DNA of 64,000 nt from a virus. The notes beneath the pieces were generated by a model, which saw only the letters and a list, made by a program, of their open reading frames with translations, was not told the DNA's origin and made no database searches. Both the position numbers and the translations under genes were made by a program. This document shows positions 43,603-63,500 of this stretch, in pieces. The DNA is taken from positions 83,531-147,530 of IMG/VR virus record IMGVR_UViG_3300049489_000321; one strand, 5' to 3'. How positions within the stretch are numbered: the first letter of the stretch is position 1; each line of letters opens with the position of its first letter.

Positions 43603-43603
43603 C

Positions 43604-49528: not shown

Positions 49529-49553
49529 TAATTTTGTGAAACACTCTCAACAC
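49529..49553 (+). promoter_or_regulatory. Promoter-like element, copy 3
   Basis: TAATTTTGTG then ACTCTCAA; ATG 49554 is 25 bases after the first T, as in other copies. A GTG inside the element is in frame with the gene but is probably not the start. Confidence 0.55.
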
Positions 49554-50086: not shown

Positions 50087-50094
50087 GATAACAT

Positions 50095-51435: not shown

Positions 51436-51440
51436 TGTAA

Positions 51441-51830: not shown

Positions 51831-51978
51831 GAGTTTTAATAGCCCTGCAAATTCAAAGAAATACATTTCGAATTATGAAAGAGTCTTTGGTAGAAAATGT
51901 GTGGATTGTGGTACGGTGGTATTTCCTAACGACAAAGGTGAGTTCGAGGATTGCGTGTGTATTAACACACTAAAATAA
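51811..51978 (+). CDS. Small zinc-ribbon peptide
   Basis: 55 aa from TTG 51811 with SD GGAGG about eight bases upstream. 'KCVDCGTVVFPNDKGEFEDC' with CVC after it gives a likely Cys4 site. The TTG start makes it less certain. Confidence 0.48.
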   Translation: MTKYLDKSFNSPANSKKYISNYERVFGRKCVDCGTVVFPNDKGEFEDCVCINTLK

Positions 51979-51979
51979 C

Positions 51980-52801
51980 ATGATTTTACGATTTTGCTCG
52001 TGTGGATGTGGTAAAATACTTAAGAGATACAAAAACAAGTTTGGCAAAGATGCTGGCTACGGATCTGGAATTTACGCACCAGACTGTGATCGCAAATTCA
52101 CAGAAGAGAAGAGTAGGAATATATCGTCTGTTGATCTGTCTTGGGTTGCTGGTATTATAGAGGGTGAAGGACACATAGGTATAGCCAATCCTAAAGTGGC
52201 AGGAACAACGCGAAGGAGGTACGTGCTAGGCTTGTGTGTTGATAACACAGATTACAGAATAATAGATAAACTTCATAATTTATTCGGTGGATATGTTGGC
52301 GTAAATAATAGAAAAATAGTTAAAGACAAAAACGCCAAATGGCAGTTTCGATGGCAAGTTTCGTCGGTCAAGGCTGCTACCATACTGAGGATCATACAAC
52401 CTTTTGTCGTTTCAAAAATCGAAGAAGTAAACCTAGGTATTGAATTTTATTTAGCATCAAGAGAATCTTGGCAGAACGACGCGACAAAGCCAAGGCTAGA
52501 ACCCATGCGACTTAAAATGCTGGAACTCCACAAGAGGCGCCCCGAACCTACGCAGGATAGTAGTTTATATCATAAATATAAGAAAAGTTTAATGGAGGTT
52601 CAAATGGGTAATAAGAAGAAAGACGCCAAATCACAACCAGAGGAAGGGGATCCTACAGAAGCCTACGTTAACCAAGACGGCTCTGCCGATACTCCTGACA
52701 AGTCTTTCTTAGATACTGTCAACGAGTTACCAGAACTACCGACTTCCGTAATGGCTGTTTCCAAGCCTAAGAAGTCTAGAAAAAGAATAAATAAACTATG
52801 A
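51980..52801 (+). CDS. LAGLIDADG-type homing endonuclease
   Basis: 273 aa. 'LSWVAGIIEGEGHIGIANP' is a LAGLIDADG motif (about residues 52-70) with the acidic metal ligands EGEG. The next 115 residues have the expected beta-saddle pattern. Only one motif is seen, so it would act as a dimer. An N-terminal 'CSCGCGKILKRY' is zinc-finger-like. The last 70 residues, from an internal 'MEVQMGNKKKDAKS', are hydrophilic and may be an unrelated fused or internally initiated protein. Confidence 0.82.
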   Translation: MILRFCSCGCGKILKRYKNKFGKDAGYGSGIYAPDCDRKFTEEKSRNISSVDLSWVAGIIEGEGHIGIANPKVAGTTRRRYVLGLCVDNTDYRIIDKLHNLFGGYVGVNNRKIVKDKNAKWQFRWQVSSVKAATILRIIQPFVVSKIEEVNLGIEFYLASRESWQNDATKPRLEPMRLKMLELHKRRPEPTQDSSLYHKYKKSLMEVQMGNKKKDAKSQPEEGDPTEAYVNQDGSADTPDKSFLDTVNELPELPTSVMAVSKPKKSRKRINKL

Positions 52802-53097
52802 ATACTAATGTAAAAGAAACCTTACACAAACTGCATAAACACGCTTGTGGTTATGAGGAAGAATGCGCCGCTAATGAAGACGACCCAAAGGAATCAGGAG
52901 TTTGTGACAATTGGGACGCTTTAAGGGATGCGTTTAGTTTAGGCGTGAAAACAGAACGCGAGGAAGTGATTAACGATCTTCGATCAATTAGGTTTAAAGT
53001 ACGTACGGTACCTTTTGAGGTTACGCATGTAGAGAACTTTATCAAATCCATAGCTGATTACTATGAGTGTGGTGATTGGAACAAAGATCTAGTTTAG
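52798..53097 (+). CDS. Hypothetical acidic protein
   Basis: 99 aa with 'HACGYEEECAANEDDPKE', a helical centre and 'HVENFIKSIADYYECG' near the end. ATGA overlap with the endonuclease gene. It resembles other short helical genes of this region; not assigned. Confidence 0.52.
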   Translation: MNTNVKETLHKLHKHACGYEEECAANEDDPKESGVCDNWDALRDAFSLGVKTEREEVINDLRSIRFKVRTVPFEVTHVENFIKSIADYYECGDWNKDLV

Positions 53098-53109
53098 TAA
53101 AACATACAG

Positions 53110-53133
53110 TAACTTTGTAAGATCGTCTTGTAT
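53110..53133 (+). promoter_or_regulatory. Promoter-like element, copy 4
   Basis: TAACTTTGTAAGATCGTCTT; ATG 53134 is 24 bases after the first T. AAGA and TCTT form a small inverted repeat. Confidence 0.6.
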
Positions 53134-53376
53134 ATGTTCGATTTTATTACAAAATGGAAAGAGCGAAAGCAACAACGACTAGCGCTAGAAACTGCGAGAA
53201 ACGCTGACATTGGAGACGTTGTGTTGCTTTGTCCTAAAGGTAAGAAAAGACCTAAAAGCTATGAAATCGTTGGAAAAAGCGCAGAGCATCATGGCACGAT
53301 CGTTTTTTCCTTGAAAGCGCTCCACGGAAAGCGTACATTCAACACCGTCGCAACCAACCACGAACTTGTCTTCTAG
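53134..53376 (+). CDS. Small basic protein
   Basis: 80 aa. The ATG at 53134 is fixed by the promoter-like element; a TTG two codons upstream lies inside it. A basic helix ('WKERKQQRLALETARNADIG') is followed by a small beta domain ('DVVLLCPKGKKRPKSYEIVG') possibly of SH3/Tudor type. A nucleic-acid role is possible; no family recognised. Confidence 0.58.
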   Translation: MFDFITKWKERKQQRLALETARNADIGDVVLLCPKGKKRPKSYEIVGKSAEHHGTIVFSLKALHGKRTFNTVATNHELVF

Positions 53377-53400
53377 TAATTTTGTATAAAGTTCTTAGAC
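53377..53400 (+). promoter_or_regulatory. Promoter-like element, copy 5
   Basis: TAATTTTGTATAAAGTTCTT begins right after the preceding TAG. No start codon follows at +24; instead a 51-base leader with an inverted repeat precedes the winged-helix gene. This argues that the element is transcriptional. Confidence 0.6.
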
Positions 53401-53405
53401 ACCAA

Positions 53406-53424
53406 AACCAGGAAGTGCCTGGTT
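53406..53424 (+). promoter_or_regulatory. Inverted repeat in leader, possible operator or hairpin
   Basis: AACCAGG (53406-53412) and CCTGGTT (53418-53424) are a perfect 7-bp inverted repeat around AAGTG. It lies between the promoter-like element and the winged-helix gene, so it could be that protein's operator or an mRNA hairpin. Confidence 0.5.
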
Positions 53425-53451
53425 AGTCAATTAAAGAAAGGATTTTGTTAA

Positions 53452-53730
53452 ATGTCTACCCGTGTTACCGTCGATCAGCTTATGTCCCACACCAACCTGG
53501 ACCGGCCTTCGTGCTATGGTCTTCTTCGTTTCCTTGAGCAGTCGGGGCTCGCGACTGTCGAAGCGGCGCCGCGTGACCCAAAGCAGCGCGGCAGGTCGCA
53601 GGCCCTTTACCGTATTCGTGAGGACGCTGCAATGAAGCTTCATCAGCTGCTTTCCAACTTTATGGTTGATAGCGTTGTTTCTGAGGAAGTTGTTGACGCT
53701 GATCTTGACAGCGTTGCTGCTGTTGGGTAG
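53452..53730 (+). CDS. Winged-helix DNA-binding protein
   Basis: 92 aa with SD AAAGGA. 'VTVDQLMSHTNLDRPSCYGL' and 'LRFLEQSGLATVEA' read as a helix-turn-helix and recognition helix, and 'GRSQALYRIRED' as the wing. Composition is GC-richer than its neighbours. The acidic C-terminus ('SEEVVDADLD') may contact partners. It is a likely transcription regulator of the accessory region and may control its own promoter through the inverted repeat upstream. Confidence 0.68.
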   Translation: MSTRVTVDQLMSHTNLDRPSCYGLLRFLEQSGLATVEAAPRDPKQRGRSQALYRIREDAAMKLHQLLSNFMVDSVVSEEVVDADLDSVAAVG

Positions 53731-54112
53731 TATATAGGGTGTAAAGCCCTGTTGCGTTCGTTTCCCCCTCTTGAGGCCGGTTCCTCTACCAACTCTTGAG
53801 GCAATAACAGAGGGTCGCTAATAATTGATACGCTTATTAGGACTAAACTTAATACTAGTATCCGGTCATACTCTCGCGGCCACACAATTACGTAGCCAAT
53901 CGTAACTCTGTAATGAGCCAGGATCGTTATAGCGCAACTTGGGAAGTTGCGTAAGAGAGTCCTTTTCTGGTAGACTGTGTTGCCCTCGGAAGTTGTACAG
54001 TATACCTGCGTCCTGAGTAAGACGGTAAACTGCTTATTTATACCGTCTGAGAACCTTAGAGTTCGGCTAGCTCTGGTGAGAATCCAGCAGACGGTTCCAT
54101 TTTAAATAAATT
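53731..54112 (+). ncRNA. Hairpin-rich non-coding region, candidate structured RNA
   Basis: 382 bases without a credible ORF. Strong helices: 53766-53771 with 53809-53814; 53818-53824 with 53834-53840 (extended by GTC/GAC across a bulge); 53888-53892 with 53901-53905; 53933-53940 with 53944-53951 (8 bp, 3-base loop); 53969-53978 with 53997-54006. Near the 3' end, 54041-54047 can pair either with 54021-54027 (7 bp) or, as 54042-54049, with 54088-54095 (8 bp). No Shine-Dalgarno is obvious before ATG 54113. It may be a regulatory leader, a stable phage RNA, or decayed tRNA DNA. Confidence 0.45.
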
Positions 54113-54316
54113 ATGAAATATTATATTAGACACGGTTATTACGGATGTGAAACCGGTTGTTGTGGTACTACTTTTGAATCCGAAGACGGTAAGCATGAAG
54201 GATTCACTTTTTGGCACCCGGATACCGATGATCAGACTTTAGAAGCTGCTAAGAAGCACTTTAAAGACAGAATTCCGTTAGATGCTGAGCTTGTTTGGGA
54301 ATACGACGGTTGTTAG
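54113..54316 (+). CDS. Small hypothetical protein
   Basis: 67 aa: 'GYYGCETGCCGTTFESED' near the N-terminus and 'TFWHPDTDDQTLEAAKKHF' beyond it. It follows the hairpin-rich region with a poor RBS, so its translation may depend on the leader fold. Not recognised. Confidence 0.55.
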   Translation: MKYYIRHGYYGCETGCCGTTFESEDGKHEGFTFWHPDTDDQTLEAAKKHFKDRIPLDAELVWEYDGC

Positions 54317-54330
54317 GGAACAAGAATACT

Positions 54331-54528
54331 ATGAAGTCTAAGAACATTGATCTTGAGGTTAATACTACCGTTAATTTTGCTGCTGTTTACGAAGAGATGC
54401 TACATCAGTTTGATTACGACGATTGGTTCAAGCTTATCGTAGACATCGAGGATACGGTCTGCGACCTAGATTTTACCAAGAAGCTCCGAGATCATCTTAA
54501 CGAAGTTATTAATGAAGCCAATGAGTAA
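54331..54528 (+). CDS. Small acidic hypothetical protein
   Basis: 65 aa from ATG 54331. Acidic helices ('DDWFKLIVDIEDTVCDLDFT'). The end overlaps the GC-rich gene that follows. Not recognised. Confidence 0.52.
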   Translation: MKSKNIDLEVNTTVNFAAVYEEMLHQFDYDDWFKLIVDIEDTVCDLDFTKKLRDHLNEVINEANE

Positions 54529-54763
54529 AGACCTAGAAACGAAGCTGCGAGCGCTGGTCGAGAACGCGATGCGCGACTACAGCACGCCACTACTCGACAC
54601 CCTACGCCAAGCCGCCGCCCTCGGTGCAGCGCAAGCGTATGAGGACTGTGACCAAATCGTCCGCCTTGAGCCTATCGAGGTCGGCGTGTTCACGACCGCC
54701 GATGTTCGGTATGCGCTGTCGCGACTCATCCGCGCCCGCGCCGCATCGACGGGGAAGCCGTGA
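54512..54763 (+). CDS. GC-rich 'ALGAAQ' family protein, short
   Basis: 83 aa (an internal ATG at 54521 is an alternative start). 'LRQAAALGAAQAYEDCDQIV' and the C-terminus 'LIRARAASTGKP' match 50095-50568; GCCCTCGGTGCAGCGCA is shared at DNA level. The first ten codons or so are AT-rich, the rest GC-rich. Unknown function. Confidence 0.58.
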   Translation: MKPMSKDLETKLRALVENAMRDYSTPLLDTLRQAAALGAAQAYEDCDQIVRLEPIEVGVFTTADVRYALSRLIRARAASTGKP

Positions 54764-54855
54764 GGAACTTGCTTTGGTTTACGCTGATGGTCGTGTCTCG
54801 GTCCGTTGTCGAGTTCATTGACTATGCCCGCGCTTCGACGGGGAGCAAGCCGTGA
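54760..54855 (+). CDS. Short membrane peptide in GC-rich island
   Basis: 31 aa from GTG, overlapping the genes on both sides by four bases. 'LLWFTLMVVSRSVVEFI' is hydrophobic. Its end 'ARASTGSKP' echoes the end of the preceding gene, which suggests a partial duplication. Confidence 0.38.
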   Translation: MRNLLWFTLMVVSRSVVEFIDYARASTGSKP

Positions 54856-55055
54856 GCAAGCCCAGGACCGAGTGGCGAATCGAGCAGTTCATCGGCTTCG
54901 GCACATGGGAGGACATCGGGATTCGCTTTGGATCGCAGCGGTATGCAAAGGCGCGGGCAAAGCGATTCACGCTGCTGGATGAGGGCGAGAACAAATATCG
55001 CGTGATCCGCATCACGCGCTGGCCTCCGCATAAGTATTTAATATGTGGCAAATGA
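54852..55055 (+). CDS. Hypothetical protein, paralogue of 44552-44737
   Basis: 67 aa from GTG. 'MSKPRTEWRIEQFIGFGTW', 'RYAKARAKRFTLLD' and 'YRVIRITRWPP' share order and pattern with the gene at 44552. The island ends within its last codons, where the DNA becomes AT-rich. Function unknown. Confidence 0.58.
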   Translation: MSKPRTEWRIEQFIGFGTWEDIGIRFGSQRYAKARAKRFTLLDEGENKYRVIRITRWPPHKYLICGK

Positions 55056-55492
55056 TTTCATCTTCACTTATTGCTGTTTGGATTCAAACAGCTAATCCTA
55101 GTATATCTTTTAGACGAGCACTCAGTTATGCTGATGTAATTGCTGTGGAATCCAAGAAATACGATGTTGATCCAAAACTAGTCGTTTCTATCGCTTGGCA
55201 TGAATCTGGTTTCCGTAGTAAATTGGTTAGCCCTACAGATGACTACGGCCTGTTACAAGTTCACTGGAGTCCTGGCGCTCCCTGGCTTAAAGGATTAGCT
55301 AAAGAAGATTTGCTTAGTCCTTACACTAACTTGAAGGTAGGCATCAGGGAACTAGCCTGGTGGCGGAAGCAGCATGAAGAACGTTGTAATGGAGAACACC
55401 CGTATTTTTCACACTACAAATGGGGTTACAAAGTAAAGAACGCTAAATACGGCGATTCTATTGATAAAAAGCAGTTAATGCTTGCACAGTAA
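55043..55492 (+). CDS. Lytic transglycosylase-like (SLT) enzyme
   Basis: 149 aa. 'SIAWHESGFRSKLVSP' carries the catalytic Glu and 'TDDYGLLQVHWS' the typical second motif of SLT/goose-lysozyme-like folds. 'LLSPYTNLKVGIRELAWW' matches the next conserved helix. The first 18 residues are weakly hydrophobic and could be a signal or SAR-like start. It cleaves peptidoglycan and may be the endolysin, or a host-cell-wall remodelling enzyme. A membrane protein gene follows directly. Confidence 0.8.
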   Translation: MWQMISSSLIAVWIQTANPSISFRRALSYADVIAVESKKYDVDPKLVVSIAWHESGFRSKLVSPTDDYGLLQVHWSPGAPWLKGLAKEDLLSPYTNLKVGIRELAWWRKQHEERCNGEHPYFSHYKWGYKVKNAKYGDSIDKKQLMLAQ

Positions 55493-55836
55493 TGAATAAG
55501 CCTATAACTACATTCGGACAGGCACGTTTATACAAAGGCGTATTGCTTGTATTTGTTCTAAATACCATAGATGCAATAGCCACGGCTGTATTTGTACATA
55601 AAGGGTGGGCAAGAGAAGCAAACCCTTTGATGAAGCACCTTTTGGATTATAGCACGTGGTTATTTATAACAGTAAAACTAGTAGTTGGACTGTTGTTTCT
55701 AACTGTGTTTTCAATAGCTTATGAATTAAAGATAACTAAGATTTTAGTGTGTGTTTTGATTGCTATATATGGACTAATTGTGTTCTTGCAAGCAATTATT
55801 GGTCTATCTGTTTTGTATGATTTTCTTATTTATTGA
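55492..55836 (+). CDS. Multi-pass membrane protein (DUF5658-like)
   Basis: 114 aa with three or four hydrophobic helices. 'FVLNTIDAIATAVFVHKG' followed by 'AREANPLMKHLLD' resembles the D...T...E.NP pattern of DUF5658-like membrane proteins. It overlaps the transglycosylase stop (TAATG). The pairing could mean a holin-like role, but the family function is unknown. Confidence 0.6.
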   Translation: MNKPITTFGQARLYKGVLLVFVLNTIDAIATAVFVHKGWAREANPLMKHLLDYSTWLFITVKLVVGLLFLTVFSIAYELKITKILVCVLIAIYGLIVFLQAIIGLSVLYDFLIY

Positions 55837-55847
55837 TCCTTATTGGA

Positions 55848-55871
55848 TAACTTTGTAAAGGATTCTTAGAC
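55848..55871 (+). promoter_or_regulatory. Promoter-like element, copy 6
   Basis: TAACTTTGTAAAGGATTCTT; ATG 55872 is 24 bases after the first T. The purine-rich middle (AAAGGA) could double as a Shine-Dalgarno. Confidence 0.62.
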
Positions 55872-56207
55872 ATGAAGACTAAGTACACTTCTAAGGCGTT
55901 TTTCGAGGTCGATAACACTGAGTATGTCTTTGTCGGTCGTGGCTGGTCTACGGCTGCCTCGTATTGGGATCCGTCTGATCAAGAGATGACCATTGACGGT
56001 TGCGAGCGGTACATCTACGCAGAGTACGAGGGTAAGGTAGTGCAAGAAAGCGCTAATAAGCACTTTGATATCGATGAGGCTATTAAGCACATTGCCACTA
56101 GTCAAGGTACGTCTGATGACGACGCAGCAGATACGATTATCCAACAGCTTTGGGACAATGCTGAAGCAGACGATTTTGACGACGAAGGGTTTGCTTGGGA
56201 TGAGTAA
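55872..56207 (+). CDS. Acidic hypothetical protein under promoter-like element
   Basis: 111 aa. An N-terminal beta-rich part ('FFEVDNTEYVFVGRGW') and an acidic C-terminal helix ('DNAEADDFDDEGFAWDE'). Acidic early proteins sometimes mimic DNA, which is only a speculation here. Not recognised. Confidence 0.58.
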   Translation: MKTKYTSKAFFEVDNTEYVFVGRGWSTAASYWDPSDQEMTIDGCERYIYAEYEGKVVQESANKHFDIDEAIKHIATSQGTSDDDAADTIIQQLWDNAEADDFDDEGFAWDE

Positions 56208-56496
56208 TAACGACGACGATCAGGACACCAATAACAGTCTAAATCTAATTAAGAATGAGGTAAATAGTGTTCTTGGATATGCTCTAAAGGATTTGGAAAG
56301 TCTTGTAGATCATGCTGTAAAAGTTGGCTATTCTATGGCCATTGAACAGAGCGCCGCCGCAGAGCGTACTGCAATTGTAGCCTTTATTCGTAGGCACTTT
56401 GCTAGTACCCTTTGGCACGTAGATACCAGGGCTGGTGAGAAACAGTCACTCGCTGAAGCTATTGAGGACGGAATTCATCACAAGGATATCCCATGA
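56200..56496 (+). CDS. Hypothetical helical protein
   Basis: 98 aa from ATG 56200, overlapping the previous stop. An acidic start, then helices with 'SAAAERTAIVAFIRRHFAST', similar in style to other 'AERTAIVA..IR' small phage proteins. Overlaps the next gene by four bases. Confidence 0.57.
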   Translation: MSNNDDDQDTNNSLNLIKNEVNSVLGYALKDLESLVDHAVKVGYSMAIEQSAAAERTAIVAFIRRHFASTLWHVDTRAGEKQSLAEAIEDGIHHKDIP

Positions 56497-56780
56497 ATAA
56501 ACTTAGAACCTACGAATTTATCCAGAAGGCAGGCAATGGTGGGTTTCCTGTTCCAAACGAAGGTCCGTTTACGCACGGTGAATCTGTGTTAGTAGTTAGT
56601 ACGCGCGAGCTGGTTGCTTTGTTTAAGATGATGACGCTTAAACTAGAAGCTGGTATGCGTCATAAAATGAGTCCTCAACGTCGTGATAGGTATGCGCGTG
56701 CTGTTGTTGCTATGAAAGAAATTACTGACGAGCACAATATGTGGGTAGTTCCGCCTGATTGGGATGAGGATTACCCATGA
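56493..56780 (+). CDS. Hypothetical protein
   Basis: 95 aa, mostly helical ('STRELVALFKMMTLKLEAGM'); basic patch 'RHKMSPQRRDRYARAV'. ATGA overlaps upstream and downstream suggest tight co-translation with the HD hydrolase. Not recognised. Confidence 0.55.
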   Translation: MNKLRTYEFIQKAGNGGFPVPNEGPFTHGESVLVVSTRELVALFKMMTLKLEAGMRHKMSPQRRDRYARAVVAMKEITDEHNMWVVPPDWDEDYP

Positions 56781-57259
56781 GTCGAGACCCACTGCTTTTA
56801 GCCAAGATGTTCGCTACTATGAAGCACGCCGATCAGAAGTACGGCGTGTTACCCTACACTCACCATTTACAGGACGTAGAGCGTGTTCTGGTTGAATTCG
56901 GCTATACCGATCTTACCCTCCGCACAGCGGCTTGGCTGCATGACGTAGTAGAGGATACTCCAACAAAGTTGAAGGAGATTTATGAAGCCTTTGGAGATGA
57001 GGTTGCCGAGCTTGTAAACGCTGTTACAAATGAGCCTGGACCTAGCCGTAAGGTACGCGCTGCGCTCACCTACCCAAAGATTAGAGCTAGTGATAACGCT
57101 ACCAGGCTAAAACTGGCTGATCGCATTGCAAACGTCCGCTCTGGTGGTAGATTAGTGGAGATGTACCGTAAAGAGCACGATGATTTCCACCGGATGATTT
57201 ATCGTCCTGACGTTGCAGACAACATGTGGGCAGAATTGAATAATCTTCTACGTACTTAA
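56777..57259 (+). CDS. HD-domain hydrolase, (p)ppGpp-hydrolase-like
   Basis: 160 aa. 'KHADQKYGVLPYTHHLQDVE' and 'RTAAWLHDVVEDTPTKLKEI' carry the His and HD metal ligands in the order seen in the hydrolase half of RelA/SpoT and in MESH1-type enzymes, and 'KLADRIANVRSGG' matches the third conserved block (LAD...N). If so it would cleave alarmone or a related nucleotide, blunting the host stringent response. Substrate unproven. Confidence 0.72.
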   Translation: MSRDPLLLAKMFATMKHADQKYGVLPYTHHLQDVERVLVEFGYTDLTLRTAAWLHDVVEDTPTKLKEIYEAFGDEVAELVNAVTNEPGPSRKVRAALTYPKIRASDNATRLKLADRIANVRSGGRLVEMYRKEHDDFHRMIYRPDVADNMWAELNNLLRT

Positions 57260-57270
57260 GGAGTTAGTTA

Positions 57271-57288
57271 ATGGATTATGATAGATGA
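57271..57288 (+). other. Five-codon mini-ORF / duplicated start region
   Basis: ATG GAT TAT GAT AGA TGA, preceded by SD TAAGGAG. Its first 15 bases equal the first 15 bases of the gene at 57466; with one more base upstream, 16 bases are identical. Its TGA overlaps the ATG of the gene at 57285. Confidence 0.5.
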
Positions 57289-57476
57289 CTCCATATAAGC
57301 GTCCTGAAGGCGAAAACCTATACAAGTGGAAAGATGTAGAGAATCTAGCGCGTAGATTTGCAGAAGAGTGTACTTGTCCTAGATCTGCAATTATGTATTG
57401 CGGTCCTTGTGAAAGATGCGTACTAGCTTCCGCTATTGTAGAAATTGAAAAATTGAGGAATTACAATGGATTATGA
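57285..57476 (+). CDS. Small Cys-rich protein, possible insertion
   Basis: 63 aa. 'EECTCPRSAIMYCGPCERCV' could bind zinc; helical around it. It begins at the stop of the mini-ORF and ends over the start of the next gene, so it appears inserted between two copies of the same 16-base sequence. Function unknown. Confidence 0.55.
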   Translation: MTPYKRPEGENLYKWKDVENLARRFAEECTCPRSAIMYCGPCERCVLASAIVEIEKLRNYNGL

Positions 57477-57759
57477 TAGAGAATTTGGTATAGACCTTCG
57501 CTTAAACATGAAGGATATGATCTTTGGGATGATGAAGCATCTTATTGACCATAACGATAAGTTACTTACGCGCGTTCGCCAAGAGCTTGAAAGACTGTTG
57601 ACGGGTGAGGAATTTGAGCGTCAAGTAGTCCAAGAGGTTCGGCACGCAGTAGATGAGCAGATTAGAAAATCTGCACAATTTGTTGCAATGAATTATGCTG
57701 ATGGTTATAAGGCCAAGATTGACAAAGCAGTGCAAAAAGCACTTGATAAGCTAAAATGA
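57466..57759 (+). CDS. Helical hypothetical protein
   Basis: 97 aa, all helical ('ILRHNDKLLTRVRQELERLL'-style heptads; 'QVVQEVRHAVDEQIRKSAQF'). Its start region is duplicated upstream at 57270-57285. ATGA overlap with the HAD gene. Not recognised. Confidence 0.58.
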   Translation: MDYDREFGIDLRLNMKDMIFGMMKHLIDHNDKLLTRVRQELERLLTGEEFERQVVQEVRHAVDEQIRKSAQFVAMNYADGYKAKIDKAVQKALDKLK

Positions 57760-58247
57760 AGGTTTTGTTTTTAGATGTAGATGGCGTTTTAAATTCCTGG
57801 GATTGGGTAGCCAGAAGAGTTAAGGATCCGCTTTGGCATCAATTGCGTAAAGAGGAACGTGAAGCCATGGAAGGGCTTGATCCCGACGCTATGGCTAGAC
57901 TTAACCGTATTGTTGATGAAACTAAATGCCTAGTGGTCCTTTCTTCTACGTGGAGAAAAGATCACTCACTTACCCAACTAAACAGAATGTTTAGACTTCG
58001 TGGCTTTAAGCACACTCTATTTGGTACGACCCCCTCTATTTGGCTAGATGGGGACGATCGTGGACGTAAGCAGCGTGGTGGAGAGATTCATTGGTGGCTG
58101 TCACAGCTTGACACTATGCCGGTTTTCGCTATTGTAGATGACGACTCCGACATGGAGCCTCATATGGACCGCTTGGTGAAGACCCACTACCAGTACGGAC
58201 TTACAGATGAAATTGCTGACAAACTGGTACAGTTGTTAAACGAATAA
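57756..58247 (+). CDS. HAD-superfamily phosphatase-like protein
   Basis: 163 aa. HAD motifs: 'VLFLDVDGVLNSWDW' (DxDGVLN), 'CLVVLSSTWRKD' (motif II, S-T-W) and 'VFAIVDDDSDM' (motif IV). The 'SSTWR' and DDDSDM patterns resemble HAD domains associated with RNA repair and polynucleotide phosphatases. A nucleotide or RNA 3'-phosphatase role is possible. No kinase domain is fused. Confidence 0.75.
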   Translation: MKVLFLDVDGVLNSWDWVARRVKDPLWHQLRKEEREAMEGLDPDAMARLNRIVDETKCLVVLSSTWRKDHSLTQLNRMFRLRGFKHTLFGTTPSIWLDGDDRGRKQRGGEIHWWLSQLDTMPVFAIVDDDSDMEPHMDRLVKTHYQYGLTDEIADKLVQLLNE

Positions 58248-58253
58248 ATATAA

Positions 58254-58475
58254 ATGACTAGAATCCCACCTAAATTCTTTACTACTAAAGCATACCTTAA
58301 CTGTGTTGTGCGTGGAATACCAGACGAACATGCCGATGAGCTTGTGGACAATAGTGTAAGAGCTTGTTTTGGTGTATGGTCTGTGACTTTGCCTTATCAG
58401 ATTTTTCAATACGATACTATTCAAAAGGAAAGATTTTTCTTTCGTCTAAACGCTAACTCTGTGAAGGAGTCTTAA
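58254..58475 (+). CDS. Small hypothetical protein
   Basis: 73 aa, beta-alpha ('FTTKAYLNCVVRGIPDEHAD'). Its last codons (NSVKES and stop) are part of the next promoter-like element, showing that the element can sit in coding DNA. Confidence 0.55.
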   Translation: MTRIPPKFFTTKAYLNCVVRGIPDEHADELVDNSVRACFGVWSVTLPYQIFQYDTIQKERFFFRLNANSVKES

Positions 58476-58477
58476 AT
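58454..58477 (+). promoter_or_regulatory. Promoter-like element, copy 7
   Basis: TAACTCTGTGAAGGAGTCTT; ATG 58478 is 24 bases from the first T. Identical to copy 8 except one T/C, and it overlaps the 3' end of a gene. Confidence 0.6.
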
Positions 58478-58657
58478 ATGAAAGTTAGGTGGAATATCTC
58501 AACAGGATACGTAAATAGAATGCCGGGTTGGGTAGTAGAAATACCTGATGAAGATCTAGAAGATTGCACTGAATCTGAACGCGACTGCATTATTGACGAT
58601 TACGTCAATAATGAATTTAACAACAAAATCCAAACTTATTGGGATATTATTGAATGA
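58478..58657 (+). CDS. Small acidic hypothetical protein
   Basis: 59 aa. 'GWVVEIPDEDLEDCTESERD' is acidic, with an N-terminal strand 'VRWNISTGYVN'. It starts at the position set by element copy 7 and has an in-element SD (AAGGAG). Overlaps the next gene by four bases. Confidence 0.55.
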   Translation: MKVRWNISTGYVNRMPGWVVEIPDEDLEDCTESERDCIIDDYVNNEFNNKIQTYWDIIE

Positions 58658-58929
58658 TCATTAACGTAACAAAAGAAGACATTAGATTAGGACGCCGGAA
58701 CAACTGTGAGCGATGTCCAATTGCTAGGGCTATTAAGCGCGTTTTTAGGCTTAAAAAAATAAAGTTCGAAAACGTGCAGGTTTTTAATGCCTACGCTAGA
58801 TGGTGGAGTGGCGACAAGTTCATGCAACGACGCCTACCGGCTAAATGTGACAAATTTATCGACAAGTTTGACGACACGTTTGATAAGAAACCTATGGTAA
58901 AGCCGTTTAAATTCAGGATTGGACTATAA
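58654..58929 (+). CDS. Conserved small protein (VTxxDI..CPIA family), copy A
   Basis: 91 aa. 'INVTKEDIRLGRRNNCERCP' followed by 'IARAIKRVF' and the end 'KPMVKPFKFRIGL' match the next gene in order and spacing: VT-DI-G, CxxCPIA, FI-KFD, KPF-F. This is a recognisable group of small phage/bacterial proteins of unknown function. The paired Cys may bind metal. Confidence 0.62.
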   Translation: MIINVTKEDIRLGRRNNCERCPIARAIKRVFRLKKIKFENVQVFNAYARWWSGDKFMQRRLPAKCDKFIDKFDDTFDKKPMVKPFKFRIGL

Positions 58930-58933
58930 CCAA

Positions 58934-58957
58934 TAACTTTGTGAAGGAGTCTTAAAT
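58934..58957 (+). promoter_or_regulatory. Promoter-like element, copy 8
   Basis: TAACTTTGTGAAGGAGTCTT; ATG 58958 is 24 bases from the first T. It shares the next 8 bases with copy 7 (AAATATGA), consistent with tandem duplication. Confidence 0.62.
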
Positions 58958-59245
58958 ATGAAGATTAAAGTAGAAGTGACTGAGAAAGACATTAAGAGAG
59001 GTAAGCCTGTTTCCTGTAGTGGTTGTCCTATTGCGCTAGCATTTAGACGGGCTACCAAGACTACTAGTAGTTCTAAGAGAATGAAATACGTCGATGTAAG
59101 TGGCGGTTACGTCGGATTTGTCTATAAGAATGACGATTATTGGGTTGACCTGCCGAGGCGTGCGCAAAATTTCATTCATAAGTTTGATTTAGGCAAATCT
59201 GTTAAGCCGTTTAGTTTCGTTGTTAAGTTTAACCCGTATACATAA
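58958..59245 (+). CDS. Conserved small protein (VTxxDI..CPIA family), copy B
   Basis: 95 aa. 'VEVTEKDIKRGKPVSCSGCP' followed by 'IALAFRRAT', then 'NFIHKFDLGKSVKPFSF'. It is a diverged tandem paralogue of the preceding gene. Having its own promoter-like element suggests the element and gene duplicated together. Confidence 0.64.
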   Translation: MKIKVEVTEKDIKRGKPVSCSGCPIALAFRRATKTTSSSKRMKYVDVSGGYVGFVYKNDDYWVDLPRRAQNFIHKFDLGKSVKPFSFVVKFNPYT

Positions 59246-59273
59246 ACCGTTGTAAAAGAAAGGAAAATGACAA

Positions 59274-59468
59274 ATGACTAATATTATCAAGCGTTTTAAG
59301 AATGAGGATGGAGCTACTGCTATTGAGTATGGGCTGTTGGCTGCGCTGATTGCGGTGGCTATTATCGTAGTTGTGTCCGCAGTTGGACAGCAACTCGGTA
59401 ATACGTTTAGCAACGTTAACGACGAGCTTGCTAACGCGCACGCCGTTCAGGTCCAGCCTAATAATTAA
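59274..59468 (+). CDS. Flp/Fap-type type IVb pilin
   Basis: 64 aa, SD AAAGGA. 'FKNEDGATAIEYGLLAALIA' followed by 'VAIIVVVSAVGQQLG' is the hallmark of Flp pilins: a short basic leader, the prepilin-peptidase site around G-A-T-A-x-E-Y and a 20-residue hydrophobic helix. Length is normal for the family. No other tad genes are nearby. It would need host prepilin peptidase and Tad machinery, so it may act as a decoy subunit or block the host pilus. The DNA is GC-richer than its neighbours, suggesting host origin. Confidence 0.85.
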   Translation: MTNIIKRFKNEDGATAIEYGLLAALIAVAIIVVVSAVGQQLGNTFSNVNDELANAHAVQVQPNN

Positions 59469-59737
59469 TGGCTAAGTTTACCTTCGTAGTTGGGTGCGGT
59501 ATAAGCCTTCATTTAGAAGTAGAAGCGGATAGCATCGAAGATGCGATTGATAAGGCTAAGGAAGCACCTGTTATGCAATTGTGCGGTCACTGTGCAGAAG
59601 GCTTCGAAGGCGAATGGTCAACCTCCGGTGAGCTAGACGGCACTCCAGGTGAACTTATCGAGCTTTGGAAAGACGATAAGCGCCTAAGCGCAGGCTCAGA
59701 CGAGCTTGAAGAGGCTATGTTGGCCTTTCTGAGTTAG
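59468..59737 (+). CDS. Hypothetical protein coupled to the pilin
   Basis: 89 aa. A beta-alpha start ('FTFVVGCGISLHLEVEADSI', then 'EDAIDKAKEA') and an acidic end. TAATG overlap with the pilin gene indicates co-translation. It may be a partner of the pilin but shows no pilus-assembly motif. Confidence 0.57.
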   Translation: MAKFTFVVGCGISLHLEVEADSIEDAIDKAKEAPVMQLCGHCAEGFEGEWSTSGELDGTPGELIELWKDDKRLSAGSDELEEAMLAFLS

Positions 59738-59781
59738 GTAGTTGAAATTACCGATCGGGAACAAAGCTACAATTAGTCTAA

Positions 59782-59806
59782 TAACTTTGTAGGATCTTCC
59801 TGATCG
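59782..59806 (+). promoter_or_regulatory. Promoter-like element, copy 9 (before tRNA genes)
   Basis: TAACTTTGTAGGATCTTCCT. No start codon follows; the tRNA-Leu gene begins 37 bases after the first T. This copy is the best evidence that the element directs transcription. Confidence 0.68.
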
Positions 59807-59818
59807 GTAAGACACTTT

Positions 59819-59900
59819 GGGTCCTTGGCGTAACTGGCAGCCGCGCTCCGCTTAAGATGGAGTCCCGTAAGGGGTATCGGTTCGACTCCGATAGGACCTA
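59819..59900 (+). tRNA. tRNA-Leu (anticodon UAA)
   Basis: Acceptor GGGTCCT with AGGACCT (one G-U), anticodon stem CTCCG/TGGAG with loop CTTAAGA (anticodon TAA), long variable arm TCCC-GTAA-GGGG typical of tRNA-Leu, T arm ATCGG/CCGAT with loop TTCGACT. CCA not encoded. It reads UUA. Confidence 0.92.
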
Positions 59901-60070
59901 CTTTAGTAGCATTTTGATCTGTGCTACTTAAAACGAGGCTAATTGATCACTAGCAAAGTCCACAATAACACCAATACAGGCGAGTATGGATCTTTACCGG
60001 CTTACCGTGACCCCGTACGTGTTGTTGACTGAAAAGGAACAATGGAAGCTTGGTGAGTGCTTCCGCCTAC
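59901..60070 (+). other. Inter-tRNA spacer with two hairpins
   Basis: Between the tRNAs: AGTAGCA (59905-59911) pairs with TGCTACT (59922-59928), and GGAAGC (60044-60049) with GCTTCC (60059-60064). They may mark processing sites. A 44-codon ORF from 59986 runs into the tRNA-Gln and is not supported. Confidence 0.5.
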
Positions 60071-60141
60071 TCAGGGATCGTCTAATGGCAGGACCGGAGC
60101 CTTTGAAGCTTCTTATCTAGGTTCAAATCCTAGTCCCTGAA
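60071..60141 (+). tRNA. tRNA-Gln (anticodon UUG)
   Basis: Acceptor TCAGGGA with TCCCTGA, D arm GTCT/GGAC, anticodon stem GGAGC/GCTTC with loop CTTTGAA (anticodon TTG), T arm CTAGG/CCTAG with loop TTCAAAT. CCA not encoded. It reads CAA. Confidence 0.92.
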
Positions 60142-60163
60142 CTAACGTATAAAGGAATAAAAC

Positions 60164-60412
60164 ATGAGAAATATCTTAAACAAAGAAGCTGAGATTGGTT
60201 ATGACTACAGAGAAAGACGCTTCATCTTTGGAGCGGGTATGACAACATTCGTGTTTATGGTTCTTTTGTTTTATTGTCATGCTTGGAACAGCGGTCTTGA
60301 TAAAGGCTGGTCGTCAGGCTATCAAAGAGGCTACGACGACGCTGAAGAGAACCTCAAGTTGATTTACGACACGCAACTTCTTTTCATGCAAGAAGGAGAT
60401 GAAAATGAGTGA
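60164..60412 (+). CDS. Single-pass membrane protein
   Basis: 82 aa. 'FIFGAGMTTFVFMVLLFYCH' at about residues 20-41 is the membrane helix; the rest is charged with 'GWSSGYQRGYDDAEENL'. It overlaps the next gene. Function unknown. Confidence 0.58.
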   Translation: MRNILNKEAEIGYDYRERRFIFGAGMTTFVFMVLLFYCHAWNSGLDKGWSSGYQRGYDDAEENLKLIYDTQLLFMQEGDENE

Positions 60413-60929
60413 CGATGAAGACTACGATCGTACCAAGGAGCTTGGTGTTATTGAAAATGTTTTTGTCGGTAAGGAAGACCACGGTATTCCTACCGTGAGT
60501 ATTATGATTACGTTTAATGACGGATTCACCAGCCAAGGATTCGGCAACCTCTGTCTTACCAAAGAGACTCAACCTGTCTACTTAGATAAGGTTTGTAGCC
60601 TTTTTGGAGTAGATCACTATAAGGAGCTAAAGGGTAAGAAATGTTATGCCCTTCGCTCATTTGACTGCTGGAATGAGTATATCGAAGGTATTGAGACTCT
60701 AGACGGTAAGCGGTTCACGCACACAGACTTTCGCTACGATGTACACGGTAGGAAAGACACCGTTCTAGAGCAACGTAAGAAAGACATGGAAGAACGTATT
60801 GCTCGTCACCATGAGGATATCAAGCGTCTAAAAGAAGAGATGAAGCACCTTGACGACGATTACGTACCATGGTCTTATATGGAGCAGCGTAAGCGCAAGC
60901 CACAAGCACGAAAGAAGCGTAAGAAGTGA
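60405..60929 (+). CDS. Hypothetical protein with basic tail
   Basis: 174 aa from ATG 60405 (SD AAGGAG; an ATG two codons earlier is possible). A globular N-terminal part ('IPTVSIMITFNDGFTSQGFG'), then a charged coiled coil and a strongly basic end ('RKRKPQARKKRKK') that could bind nucleic acid. Not recognised. Confidence 0.6.
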   Translation: MSDDEDYDRTKELGVIENVFVGKEDHGIPTVSIMITFNDGFTSQGFGNLCLTKETQPVYLDKVCSLFGVDHYKELKGKKCYALRSFDCWNEYIEGIETLDGKRFTHTDFRYDVHGRKDTVLEQRKKDMEERIARHHEDIKRLKEEMKHLDDDYVPWSYMEQRKRKPQARKKRKK

Positions 60930-61174
60930 AAGTAAATGGCAAGCGTGTTACTGATCGCAATCGTGTTCTATACAAATGCCAAGCACTTAGCGATTCTGGT
61001 AGGCGATGTAATAGGCAGTCTACTAGGAGCCCCAACGAGTACCTTGGTGACCCTACTGTAGTGTCTTGGACGGATCACAGAGTAGTTGAACAGCACGGCG
61101 GTGTTTGGGCAGTTAAAGTGTATCTGTGCCAAAAGCACGAAGATATGCTTAATCACGTAGAAGATTATGACTAA
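60926..61174 (+). CDS. Small Cys/His protein
   Basis: 82 aa from GTG. 'YKCQALSDSGRRCNRQSTR' and 'VKVYLCQKHEDML' make a likely zinc site (CxnC...CxxH), a pattern also seen in small phage proteins of the 'C.....G..C.......C..H' type. Overlaps its neighbours. Confidence 0.56.
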   Translation: MKVNGKRVTDRNRVLYKCQALSDSGRRCNRQSTRSPNEYLGDPTVVSWTDHRVVEQHGGVWAVKVYLCQKHEDMLNHVEDYD

Positions 61175-61370
61175 CGAGCAGCTTCAGTGGTTAACAGAGT
61201 TTTTGCTCGCTAATAACCTAACTATAGATAACTTACCAATGTTATCACAGCTAGTGCTATATTCATACAACCAAGGTTGGAATTCTGCTATAAAAGAAGC
61301 GTCAAACGAATTAGCTAATATCGGCTGTGACTATGGTTGTAGGTTTGTTGTAGACCACCTAGTCAAGTAA
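61167..61370 (+). CDS. Small helical protein
   Basis: 67 aa. 'TEFLLANNLTIDNLPMLSQL' and 'YNQGWNSAIKEASNELANIG' read as helices. Its stop TAA forms the start of promoter-like element copy 10. Not recognised. Confidence 0.55.
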   Translation: MTNEQLQWLTEFLLANNLTIDNLPMLSQLVLYSYNQGWNSAIKEASNELANIGCDYGCRFVVDHLVK

Positions 61371-61391
61371 CTTTGTGGAGTGTTCTTGGAC
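61368..61391 (+). promoter_or_regulatory. Promoter-like element, copy 10
   Basis: TAACTTTGTGGAGTGTTCTT; ATG 61392 is 24 bases from the first T. GGAG within could act as Shine-Dalgarno. Confidence 0.62.
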
Positions 61392-61826
61392 ATGACTACT
61401 GTACTTAAGCCAGGTGTGTATGTTCTTTCTGAAGATGTGGAGAATCCTTCACCGGATCGCCGCCAGAAGTATGATTGGCGAGCCCACGCTGTTTGGCGTA
61501 AGGGTGATAGGTTTGACGTAGTTACTCGAATGGAGTATGGTTGGCCTGATAGGGATGAACTCGTTGAGAGCACACGCCTTCAGCGTTGTCAAGCACACGC
61601 CTCCCTTTACCAGTTTGGGCCTGGTTGCGAAGGTTGGGAATTGCTTGCTGCTAAGCTTACTCCTGTTGATGAGAATGTTGATGATATCCTGCGTCTGACT
61701 TATGATAAGACTTTCCTCGATGGTGACGACCTTGTGCGTCATATGGTGAACACTGGTAAGTGGTCGGTAGAGTACGTTAAGAGCCTTTTTACTGAACTTG
61801 ACGAACTTTCGAATAAGGAAGAGTAA
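61392..61826 (+). CDS. Hypothetical protein under promoter-like element
   Basis: 144 aa; ATG 61392 is set by the element. Beta-rich N-terminal two thirds ('GVYVLSEDVENPSPDRRQKY') and a helical end ('MVNTGKWSVEYVKSLFTELD'). Many T-ending codons compared with the left half of the window. Not recognised. Confidence 0.6.
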   Translation: MTTVLKPGVYVLSEDVENPSPDRRQKYDWRAHAVWRKGDRFDVVTRMEYGWPDRDELVESTRLQRCQAHASLYQFGPGCEGWELLAAKLTPVDENVDDILRLTYDKTFLDGDDLVRHMVNTGKWSVEYVKSLFTELDELSNKEE

Positions 61827-61828
61827 TT

Positions 61829-62158
61829 ATGGGAATCAGGGTTTTTGAGGACAGTACGGGCGAAAAAGCTGTGCTTTATTGCTCTACTACCAACATGGCA
61901 TTTGGGCCTGTCATTCAGGACTATGCGTGGGCCAATGCAGTAGATGTTGCTGAGTGTTTTCTTGCTTGGTCCCGTCCTTACGGTGACCTTCGTAGGTTGC
62001 CATTTGACGATCTTTCTGGCCTTTATTCAAAGTTTTTGAATAGGCTTGAGACTAGACCTTTTACTTTAGATGCTTGTTTTACGTGTGGTAATATTCTTTG
62101 TGATACTGAGGTAGACGGACTGCCTTATCACAAGCATTGTGTTGACGTAAAGGAATAA
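61829..62158 (+). CDS. Hypothetical protein
   Basis: 109 aa. 'VFEDSTGEKAVLYCSTTNMA' and a C-terminal zinc-like 'DACFTCGNILC' with 'YHKHC'. It follows the previous stop by two bases. Not recognised. Confidence 0.58.
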   Translation: MGIRVFEDSTGEKAVLYCSTTNMAFGPVIQDYAWANAVDVAECFLAWSRPYGDLRRLPFDDLSGLYSKFLNRLETRPFTLDACFTCGNILCDTEVDGLPYHKHCVDVKE

Positions 62159-62160
62159 CC

Positions 62161-62523
62161 ATGACTATTAACGACGTTTTTGATAAAGTTGTTGAACATA
62201 TGCTTAAGCAAAATCAGCGCGCTGTTGACAAAGACAACCGGTGCATGTACAAAACTGAGGATGGTCTTAAGTGTGCGGTTGGTTGTCTTATTAACGACAC
62301 CAACTACAGCACTACCCTTGAGCACCAGTCTATCAGGTCTATTGAAGCAGCGTTGAAACTGTCTGGCGTTCCTGTGGAGTCTAGTAGGGTTTTGCGTCTA
62401 CTTGAGGATCTTCAAGAGGTTCACGATCACACCGATCCTAATATGTGGTATTTCGCGCTTAAGGGTGTCGCGCAGCAACACGACCTGTTTTGTAAGCACT
62501 TGTCAAATGACGTAACTGTGTAG
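62161..62523 (+). CDS. Conserved small phage protein (CAVGCLI-type)
   Basis: 120 aa. 'CMYKTEDGLKCAVGCLINDT' followed by a helical C-terminus is a pattern I know from conserved hypothetical proteins in phages and mobile elements (Y...G..CA.GCLI). Function not known. Its last codons overlap element copy 11. Confidence 0.62.
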   Translation: MTINDVFDKVVEHMLKQNQRAVDKDNRCMYKTEDGLKCAVGCLINDTNYSTTLEHQSIRSIEAALKLSGVPVESSRVLRLLEDLQEVHDHTDPNMWYFALKGVAQQHDLFCKHLSNDVTV

Positions 62524-62538
62524 TGGATTCTTTGACAA
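62513..62538 (+). promoter_or_regulatory. Promoter-like element, copy 11 (diverged)
   Basis: TAACTGTGTAGTGGATTCTT; ATG 62539 is 26 bases from the first T. One mismatch in the first block and a slightly longer spacer. Confidence 0.45.
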
Positions 62539-62796
62539 ATGGATAATAAAGATCTTGAGAAGAGACTTAAAGAAATGGTGGATGAAGAGGCATACGTGGC
62601 ATGCGCGTTTGGATATGATTGGGCAATGGATGATTACTACCGCATTGCCTCGCGCGTAGCAGAGCTTGCTTTTGAGGTAGAGCGCAAAGAATGTGCGCTA
62701 ATTGCAGACGAAATTCGTGCTTTAAATCAAGGCGATCCAGGCGGTATCATGGCTGCTGCTGAAATTGCCCGGCGAATTTACCTACGATCTTCGTAA
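62539..62796 (+). CDS. Small helical protein
   Basis: 85 aa with 'VERKECALIADEIRALNQGD' and 'GGIMAAAEIARRIYLRS', a helical pattern (ERxxCAxIADxIR) seen in many small phage proteins of GC-rich phages. Unlike those in the GC islands, its DNA is near backbone composition. Confidence 0.58.
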   Translation: MDNKDLEKRLKEMVDEEAYVACAFGYDWAMDDYYRIASRVAELAFEVERKECALIADEIRALNQGDPGGIMAAAEIARRIYLRSS

Positions 62797-62819
62797 CGTT
62801 AACGCTCACAACGCGATAG

Positions 62820-62843
62820 TAATTTTGTATAAAACTCTTAACC
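62820..62843 (+). promoter_or_regulatory. Promoter-like element, copy 12
   Basis: TAATTTTGTATAAAACTCTT; the next ATG (62854) lies ten bases further than usual and has its own SD (CGGAGG). Confidence 0.58.
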
Positions 62844-62853
62844 GGAGGTTGTC

Positions 62854-63081
62854 ATGAGTCAATATACTAGGTTCCTGGCTGTTGGTCCCCACGTGTTTGG
62901 ATTTGGTAATACTCCTGAGGAAGCAATTAAGGTGGCTAGACGTTATGGCGCACCACGGGGTATGCGCTCTAAGGCATTTGGCGTGTATCACGCTAATAAT
63001 GAAACGTGGGTGGACGATTATGGCCGAGTTGGGGGCCTTGGCCCCCTGGTTGAAGGCTACAAGGATTGGCGCGATGAGTAA
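62854..63081 (+). CDS. Small hypothetical protein
   Basis: 75 aa, SD CGGAGG. 'FLAVGPHVFGFGNTPEEAIK' and 'VYHANNETWVDDYGRVGGLG'. Overlaps the next gene by eight bases. Not recognised. Confidence 0.55.
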   Translation: MSQYTRFLAVGPHVFGFGNTPEEAIKVARRYGAPRGMRSKAFGVYHANNETWVDDYGRVGGLGPLVEGYKDWRDE

Positions 63082-63268
63082 GTTCTATAAGGTTACGTGG
63101 GAGATTGATCTTGAAGCGAATAACCCTGAGCACGCTGCTAAGATCGCCGCTAGGTGGCTTGCAGAGGGCTCTGGTGACGGTGGTTGGTATCTCACCGTGA
63201 CGGACGAAAACAAGATTTCTACGGATTTTGACACTTCTACAATGGATTGGGAGGATTGCAATGGATAA
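63074..63268 (+). CDS. Small hypothetical protein
   Basis: 64 aa from ATG 63074. 'YKVTWEIDLEANNPEHAAKI' followed by an Ala-rich helix and a terminal strand, a fold pattern common in small phage proteins. Overlaps the next gene. Not recognised. Confidence 0.57.
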   Translation: MSKFYKVTWEIDLEANNPEHAAKIAARWLAEGSGDGGWYLTVTDENKISTDFDTSTMDWEDCNG

Positions 63269-63500
63269 GGGTATTATGATTTCTATTAACGATAAGGCTG
63301 CGCCTAACGCTAACCCTAACCGTGGTTACCATCCGTCTGTCTGCACGGTTGTCTTTCCTGATAACCTCACTGAGAAGGGGCAAGAAGCGTGGATTGAGGT
63401 AATTCGCCAGCGATTTAAGAATGACATGTGGAATTACCCACCTGTTCGTGTTAACGCTACTACTTGGGAAATCCATCACGGATACGATTCAGGCGACTAA
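63261..63500 (+). CDS. Small hypothetical protein
   Basis: 79 aa from ATG 63261. 'YHPSVCTVVFPDNLTEKGQE' and a C-terminal strand 'VRVNATTWEIHHGY'. Probably co-translated with the preceding gene. Not recognised. Confidence 0.56.
   Translation: MDKGIMISINDKAAPNANPNRGYHPSVCTVVFPDNLTEKGQEAWIEVIRQRFKNDMWNYPPVRVNATTWEIHHGYDSGD

What the first reader, a model, noticed from the sequence alone, without database searches (positions are those of the whole stretch)
59274..59737. Phage-encoded Flp-type pilin
The ORF has the complete hallmark of type IVb Flp pilins (basic leader, GATAxEYGLL cleavage region, hydrophobic helix) and normal length. No Tad assembly gene is in the window. A phage copy could poison or decorate the host pilus, block superinfection by pilus-using phages, or be a fortuitous host gene. 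The coupled downstream gene (59468) is unknown and could be its partner.
Basis: partly seen in the sequence, partly recalled or inferred. Interest (0 to 1): 0.75.

Follow-up and report, generated by a model that had tools for sequence, protein, structure and literature searches.

The report
Orphan Tad pilin in SPO1-like phage
A large bacteria-infecting virus carries an intact bacterial gene for the subunit of a hair-like surface appendage (a Tad/Flp pilus) without any of the assembly machinery, and about 38 other viral sequences do the same, so some viruses may be remodelling or jamming their host's pili; this is inferred from sequence, not shown by experiment.

Summary
ORF 59274-59468 encodes a complete 64-aa Flp/Tad major prepilin: Pfam PF04964 at 61.5 bits (cut-off 32.2), leader, processing Gly, E5/Y6 and hydrophobic helix all intact. 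Its predicted mature N-terminus aligns exactly with residue 1 of the solved Caulobacter PilA pilus chains. It lies inside a 147.5-kb integrase-less phage contig whose portal and capsid are SPO1/Herelleviridae-like. No PF04964 paralogue, prepilin peptidase or secretion ATPase was found in the contig. Twenty-eight capsid-related contigs (63-73% identity, many of them fragments) and 21 more distant ones lack flp, so it is a lineage-specific accessory gene in a variable, tRNA-bearing region. The nearest pilins are alphaproteobacterial (50-68%). About 38 other IMG/VR contigs carry flp (none of the 32 tested has a T2SSE ATPase), in about 20 apparently unrelated backbones. In the one prophage family that could be tested, the gene is under purifying selection (dN/dS 0.08-0.48). 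Flp had been annotated, untested, in Vibrio and Sinorhizobium prophages. Best explanation: a captured pilin that enters the host Tad pathway and changes the host pili, most likely excluding other pilus-dependent phages. That function is inferred; host and expression are unknown.

The parts
59274..59468 (+). flp: complete 64-aa Flp/Tad prepilin. Leader MTNIIKRFKNEDG, predicted cleavage G13|A14, mature ATAIEYGLLAALIAVAIIVVVSAVGQQLGNTFSNVNDELANAHAVQVQPNN
   Evidence: Pfam PF04964 61.5 bits; alignment with bacterial Flps; mature N-terminus aligns with residue 1 of PDB 8u1k/8u2b Caulobacter PilA; AF2 single helix, pLDDT 83
59468..59737 (+). downstream 89-aa ORF, overlaps flp stop by 1 nt (TAATG), probably co-translated; function unknown, not shown to be a pilin partner
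   Evidence: phrog_9642 E 4.7e-6; no INPHARED hit; no match in 36 related contigs (that search had no positive control)
58958..59245 (+). upstream phage gene (phrog_19191), the second of two tandem paralogues (58654-58929 and 58958-59245); anchors flp in phage DNA
   Evidence: PHROG E 8e-12 and 7e-13; homologues in Gordonia and Tunturiibacter phages
59819..60142 (+). phage tRNA-Leu(UAA) 59819-59901 and tRNA-Gln(UUG) 60071-60142, 351 bp downstream of the flp stop
   Evidence: ARAGORN
41000..63500 (+). variable accessory region of small co-directional genes that holds flp; few homologues in the two longest related phage contigs compared, while structural and replication modules are conserved
   Evidence: tblastn synteny against G041 and G056

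Best explanation
The gene is a host-derived moron-like gene: a complete Tad/Flp major prepilin captured from a Tad-bearing, probably alphaproteobacterial, bacterium. During infection it is made as a prepilin, inserted in the inner membrane and cut at G13|A14 by the host prepilin peptidase (the phage encodes none). It then enters the host pilin pool and is assembled into, or competes in, the host Tad machine. Because its exposed residues differ from the host pilin, hybrid, fewer or non-functional pili result. The most likely benefit is exclusion of other pilus-dependent phages from the infected cell; altered attachment of the cell is a second possibility. Shown here: pilin identity, intact signature residues, no detected prepilin peptidase or secretion ATPase in the phage, phage context, recurrent carriage by other phages, and purifying selection on the homologue of one prophage family. 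Inferred: expression, processing, assembly, the effect on pili, and the benefit.
For: Identity and integrity: PF04964 61.5 bits; G-1, E5, Y6 and hydrophobic helix kept. In Caulobacter, Glu19/Tyr20 (here E18/Y19) are needed for Tad assembly but not for expression or processing (PMC11067988), and they are retained. Predicted mature start equals residue 1 of PDB 8u1k/8u2b. Orphan gene: no prepilin peptidase, no T2SSE, no integrase in the contig. Phage context: SPO1-like portal and capsid, phage gene families upstream, tRNAs downstream; genes 2 kb upstream (56777) and 2.7 kb downstream (62161) have homologues in related phages. Recurrence: 38 other IMG/VR contigs carry Flp; none of the 32 tested has T2SSE. 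Placements in other phages are moron-like: beside small and large terminase genes in a prophage family, antisense within a tRNA array with its own terminator in L114, next to a virion lysin in L116. Purifying selection in that prophage family: dN/dS 0.08-0.48 over 21 pairs. Plausibility of receptor change: PilA of Caulobacter NA1000 differs from the host strain at four positions, two of them (N43R, T51A) at the phage contact, and does not bind phage PhiCb5 (PMC11067988); the phage Flp differs from that PilA at 23 of 42 mature residues. Phages commonly block type IV pili by other means: Tip, Aqs1, Zip (PMC11656802) and PfsE (PMC8764522, listed).
Against: Host unknown, so presence of a Tad system in the host is not shown. 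The gene is absent from all 28 near and 21 more distant phage relatives, so it is not essential to the lineage and could be transient; many of those contigs are fragments. Codon use is atypical (mean log usage -1.22 against -1.05 to -1.14 in core genes; random synonymous coding -1.26 +/- 0.06), as expected for a recent import that may not yet have a role. No promoter above chance was found near it. No expression or functional data exist. The recurrence and the selection test come from other phages, some of them integrase-bearing, where benefit to a lysogen is an alternative.
Confidence: 0.45

Rival explanations
1. Fortuitous passenger: a recently acquired host gene of no benefit to the phage, on its way to being lost.
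For: Absent from every sampled relative; atypical codon use; lies in a variable accessory region; no promoter above chance.
Against: The frame and all signature residues are intact. The gene recurs in 38 other viral contigs and about 20 apparently unrelated backbones. It is under purifying selection in the prophage family that could be tested.
Confidence: 0.25
2. Membrane signal rather than pilus part: the phage pilin acts as an inner-membrane pilin monomer that triggers host signalling. In Caulobacter, monomeric PilA binds the kinase PleC and promotes c-di-GMP synthesis and swarmer-to-replicative differentiation (Del Medico et al. 2020, as described in PMC10790692). The phage would push a non-replicating host cell into a replication-competent state.
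For: Only the pilin, not the machine, is carried by the window phage and the other viral contigs tested. The pathway exists in an alphaproteobacterium, the group of the nearest pilins.
Against: Host unknown; not known whether the PleC-binding residues are conserved in Flp outside Caulobacter; E5/Y6, which matter for assembly, are kept in every aligned sequence, which fits polymerisation better.
Confidence: 0.1
3. Pilus gain: the phage adds pilin to raise piliation, surface attachment or aggregation of infected cells, helping progeny meet new hosts, or feeding the cell's own adsorption sites.
For: Intact assembly residues; Flp pili mediate attachment in Vibrio and Caulobacter (PMC12482185, PMC6581867); the prophage copies were read as adherence factors (PMC12482185).
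Against: More pili on a doomed cell would also adsorb progeny or competitors; Tad-bearing genomes examined already have 2-7 PF04964 matches each, so pilin supply is unlikely to be limiting.
Confidence: 0.12
4. Repurposed small membrane protein (for example in lysis or membrane defence) that no longer enters the pilus pathway.
For: A small single-helix membrane protein; a lytic transglycosylase (SLT) gene lies 4.2 kb upstream (55043-55489); flp is close to lysis or virion-lysin-like genes in L116 and L100.
Against: The prepilin leader, the cleavage Gly and E5/Y6 would not be needed, yet are invariant across the aligned viral copies.
Confidence: 0.08

Closest known systems
Flp/Tad major pilins (PF04964; Caulobacter PilA, PDB 8u1k/8u2b)
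   Same: Leader, G|A cleavage, ATAIEYGL mature start, E5/Y6, single hydrophobic helix, length; 45% identity over the 42-residue mature PilA stretch
   Different: Encoded by a phage, no detected prepilin peptidase or T2SSE, C-terminal extension ANAHAVQVQPNN
Flp pilins annotated in Vibrio harveyi phi345-like and Sinorhizobium meliloti phiLM21-like prophages (PMC12482185, PMC12429752)
   Same: A Flp-family pilin in a tailed-phage genome; function untested (no Tad assembly genes mentioned in the passages read)
   Different: Those are integrated prophages; here an integrase-less SPO1-like phage
Phage inhibitors of type IV pili (Tip/D3112, Aqs1/DMS3, Zip/JBD26, PfsE/Pf)
   Same: Proposed outcome: a small phage protein alters host pili and excludes other phages
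   Different: They target PilB, PilZ or other assembly parts of type IVa pili; here the candidate is the pilin itself of the Tad (type IVc) pilus, and inhibition is unproven
Herelleviridae/Spounavirinae (SPO1, Lysinibacillus LysYB1)
   Same: Portal 38-40% and major capsid 44-46% identity, contractile-tail genome of similar size
   Different: Deeply divergent clade of metagenomic contigs with no cultured member found; terminase closer to Thermus and Gram-negative phage TerLs

Membership tests
Flp/Fap (Tad) pilin, PF04964 | Profile match above curated cut-off | tested here: met
   61.5 bits against 32.2
Flp/Fap (Tad) pilin, PF04964 | Short basic leader ending in Gly, with Glu at +5 and Tyr at +6 of the mature protein | tested here: met
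   KRFKNEDG|ATAIEYG; E, G and EY columns invariant in the alignment
Flp/Fap (Tad) pilin, PF04964 | Single hydrophobic helix without a globular beta domain, about 45-60 aa mature | tested here: met
   AF2 helix 2-58, pLDDT 83; KD 2.81; mature length 51 aa
Flp/Fap (Tad) pilin, PF04964 | Processed by TadV/CpaA and polymerised by CpaF/TadBC | not testable with these tools
   needs expression; mature start matches PDB 8u1k/8u2b
Complete Tad secretion/pilus system | Peptidase and ATPase encoded with the pilin | tested here: not met
   no PF01478 and no PF00437 in the contig; platform, secretin and chaperone genes were not searched by profile
Phage-encoded pilus inhibitors (Tip/Aqs1/Zip/PfsE type) | Experimentally blocks pili and excludes superinfection | not testable with these tools
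   functional analogy only
Phage-encoded pilus inhibitors (Tip/Aqs1/Zip/PfsE type) | Sequence homology to those inhibitors | not tested
   not compared directly; the protein is a pilin by profile
Herelleviridae-like phage (carrier) | SPO1-type portal and major capsid | tested here: met
   E 1e-84 to 1e-93 for portal, about 1e-107 to 1e-110 for capsid
Herelleviridae-like phage (carrier) | Long terminal repeats | tested here: inconclusive
   only a 40-nt low-complexity repeat shared by both contig ends
Herelleviridae-like phage (carrier) | Virulent, no integrase | tested here: met
   no PF00589 in G000; serine recombinases not scanned

The most novel reading that the evidence does not exclude
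Phages of Tad-bearing bacteria have repeatedly and independently captured the major pilin alone and use it as a molecular decoy. The phage pilin enters the host pilus (or the inner-membrane pilin pool) and rewrites pilus-dependent phage sensitivity or pilus-linked c-di-GMP and cell-cycle signalling: a form of host takeover by pilin mimicry.
Probability: 0.4. Interest if true: 0.8.

Novelty: new variant of a known kind. Interest (0 to 1): 0.55.

Why it matters
Known phage anti-pilus factors are inhibitors of type IVa assembly; a phage-borne structural pilin of the Tad pilus, intact and recurrent but always without the ATPase in the contigs tested, would be a different strategy (subunit mimicry). 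Tad pili are receptors for model Caulobacter phages, and Flp pilins are so short that pilin swaps, pilus labelling and phage adsorption can be tested directly. It also suggests that Flp genes annotated as virulence factors in Vibrio prophages may be anti-phage or host-takeover genes.

Tried and rejected
Phage structural family: rejected; PHROG best hit E 0.26. Host contamination or chimeric contig: unlikely; phage families upstream, homologues of related phages within 2-3 kb on both sides, and an even gene direction surround it. INPHARED search for Flp: nothing significant, but the control search of 72,556 plasmids with the same query was also empty, so BLAST's low-complexity filter probably hides Flp helices; no claim of absence from isolated phages is made. 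Promoter and terminator scan around flp: no excess over shuffles. Monophyly of viral Flps: the short alignment cannot settle it (13 label changes, at least 2 forced by starred branches); the case for several captures rests mainly on unrelated backbones (loci of at most 20 kb). NCBIfam SecE match (E 0.007, 16 bits against cut-off 154): spurious. Integrase scan of 14 Flp-bearing viral records: 5 positive, so carriers are both temperate and integrase-less. Fold search skipped: a single helix is uninformative. Two paper searches found no report of a function for a phage-borne Flp; the library holds open-licence papers only.

Full report
ORF 59274-59468 on the plus strand encodes 64 aa and scores 61.5 bits against Pfam PF04964 (Flp_Fap; cut-off 32.2). 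Aligned with 14 bacterial and one other viral Flp, it keeps every invariant feature: the acidic residue and Gly before the cleavage site, T-A-x-E-Y, Leu, Ala and the distal Phe. A profile search of the PDB retrieves only two significant molecules, both Caulobacter Tad pilins (8u2b/8ucr and 8u1k), whose first residue aligns with A14 of the window protein, exactly the predicted cleavage point (45% identity over 42 residues). AlphaFold gives one continuous helix (pLDDT 83). The downstream ORF 59468-59737 overlaps the stop codon by one base, so co-translation is likely, but it is not a recognisable pilus gene.

The carrier is a phage. The window is part of a 147,530-bp IMG/VR record whose portal and major capsid are related to SPO1-like Herelleviridae at 38-46% identity. 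It has DNA polymerase A, DnaB-like helicase, RecA-like, SbcC-like, ribonucleotide reductase, terminase and baseplate genes, and no tyrosine integrase. Thus it looks like a virulent myophage. It has no prepilin peptidase and no T2SSE ATPase; the remaining Tad components were not searched by profile. Flanking genes belong to phage families (tandem phrog_19191 genes) and two tRNA genes follow 0.35-0.6 kb downstream.

The pilin is private to this phage among those sampled. A capsid alignment found 28 contigs of the same clade (63-73% capsid identity) and many more distant ones. None of the 49 records tested holds a PF04964 match, while the same search found all 32 Flp-bearing control records and the window's own contig. 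Many of the 49 are fragments, but they include contigs of 115-171 kb. Synteny with two long relatives shows conserved structural and replication modules and an almost unshared region from about 41 kb to the end of the window, where flp lies. Codon use of flp is among the least phage-like of its region, and its GC (46%) is close to that of the phage (43%). Together this suggests acquisition after the clade diverged.

The donor was probably alphaproteobacterial. Many of these bacteria carry 2-7 PF04964 matches, and in two of the three neighbourhoods printed (L009 and L031) flp has no recognisable Tad genes beside it, so orphan pilins are not unusual in the donors.

Phage-borne orphan Flp is rare but recurrent. 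Two alignment scans of 2.9 million viral contigs gave 38 other contigs. None of the 32 tested for a T2SSE ATPase has one. Gene sharing divides those 32 into one prophage family of ten loci, two pairs and about 18 singletons, judged on loci of at most 20 kb. In the prophage family flp lies next to the terminase and portal genes and, in the two loci scanned, 0.4-0.8 kb from a tRNA-Met; in L114 (128.9 kb, NAD-salvage-like genes by sequence inspection) it lies antisense inside a 26-tRNA region with its own terminator. Every viral copy read keeps the cleavage Gly and the E-Y pair. In the prophage family, dN/dS is 0.08-0.48, so the phage-borne genes there are maintained as proteins. That test could not be made for the window gene, which has no close relative.

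Mechanism. Since only the pilin is carried and its processing and assembly residues are kept, the simplest model is entry into the host Tad pathway. In Caulobacter, Glu19 and Tyr20 are needed for assembly, and a host and a non-host PilA for phage PhiCb5 differ at only four positions, two of them at the phage contact (PMC11067988). A foreign pilin differing at over half of the mature residues would therefore be expected to change pilus-phage recognition if it polymerises, or pilus number if it competes unproductively. Phage interference with type IV pili for superinfection exclusion is well documented for type IVa pili (PMC11656802, PMC8764522). A second possibility is signalling by the monomer in the inner membrane, as proposed for PilA and PleC. 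All steps after the sequence are inference.

Known versus new. Flp pilins have been annotated in V. harveyi phi345-like and S. meliloti phiLM21-like prophages, without tests (PMC12482185, PMC12429752). What is added here is an intact copy in an integrase-less SPO1-like phage, recurrence across viral backbones, absence of the ATPase in all tested carriers, and purifying selection in one carrier family. The INPHARED BLAST searches were negative but their control failed too, so the frequency in isolated phages remains open. Overall this is a new variant of a known kind (host-derived moron gene), of moderate to good interest.

Noticed in passing
L114 (IMGVR_UViG_2920292642_000002), 9144-14371: A phage-like contig of 128.9 kb with 26 tRNA genes in the 20-kb stretch read, sequences resembling NAMPT and NMN adenylyltransferase (not profile-tested) and two integrase matches, with flp inserted antisense in the tRNA array.
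   Followed up: partly
window 58654-58929 and 58958-59245: Tandem paralogues of phrog_19191 with relatives only in Gordonia and Tunturiibacter phages, in a phage whose pilin is alphaproteobacterial in type: conflicting host hints.
   Followed up: partly
window 12729-13655: Spherulin4-family (PF12138, 107 bits) protein in the virion gene region, perhaps a tail-borne glycosidase.
   Followed up: no
window 55043-55492: Lytic transglycosylase (SLT) gene 4.2 kb upstream of flp, followed by a membrane protein with DUF5658: possible lysis pair.
   Followed up: no
G000:C1:16658-17416 (L003), outside the window: Thg1-like tRNA-His guanylyltransferase (PF04446, 113 bits) in the phage; an IMP dehydrogenase/GMP reductase gene also lies at G000:C1:45588-46676.
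   Followed up: no
G000:C1 1-40 and 147433-147530: Both contig ends lie in the same CTG/GAT-rich repeat, so the contig may be a nearly complete genome broken at a low-complexity repeat.
   Followed up: no
L121-L148: A clade of 28 SPO1-like metagenomic contigs (capsid 63-73% identical to this phage) with no cultured member found.
   Followed up: partly
L092, G006:C1:8455-8842: A viral contig with two tandem flp genes.
   Followed up: no
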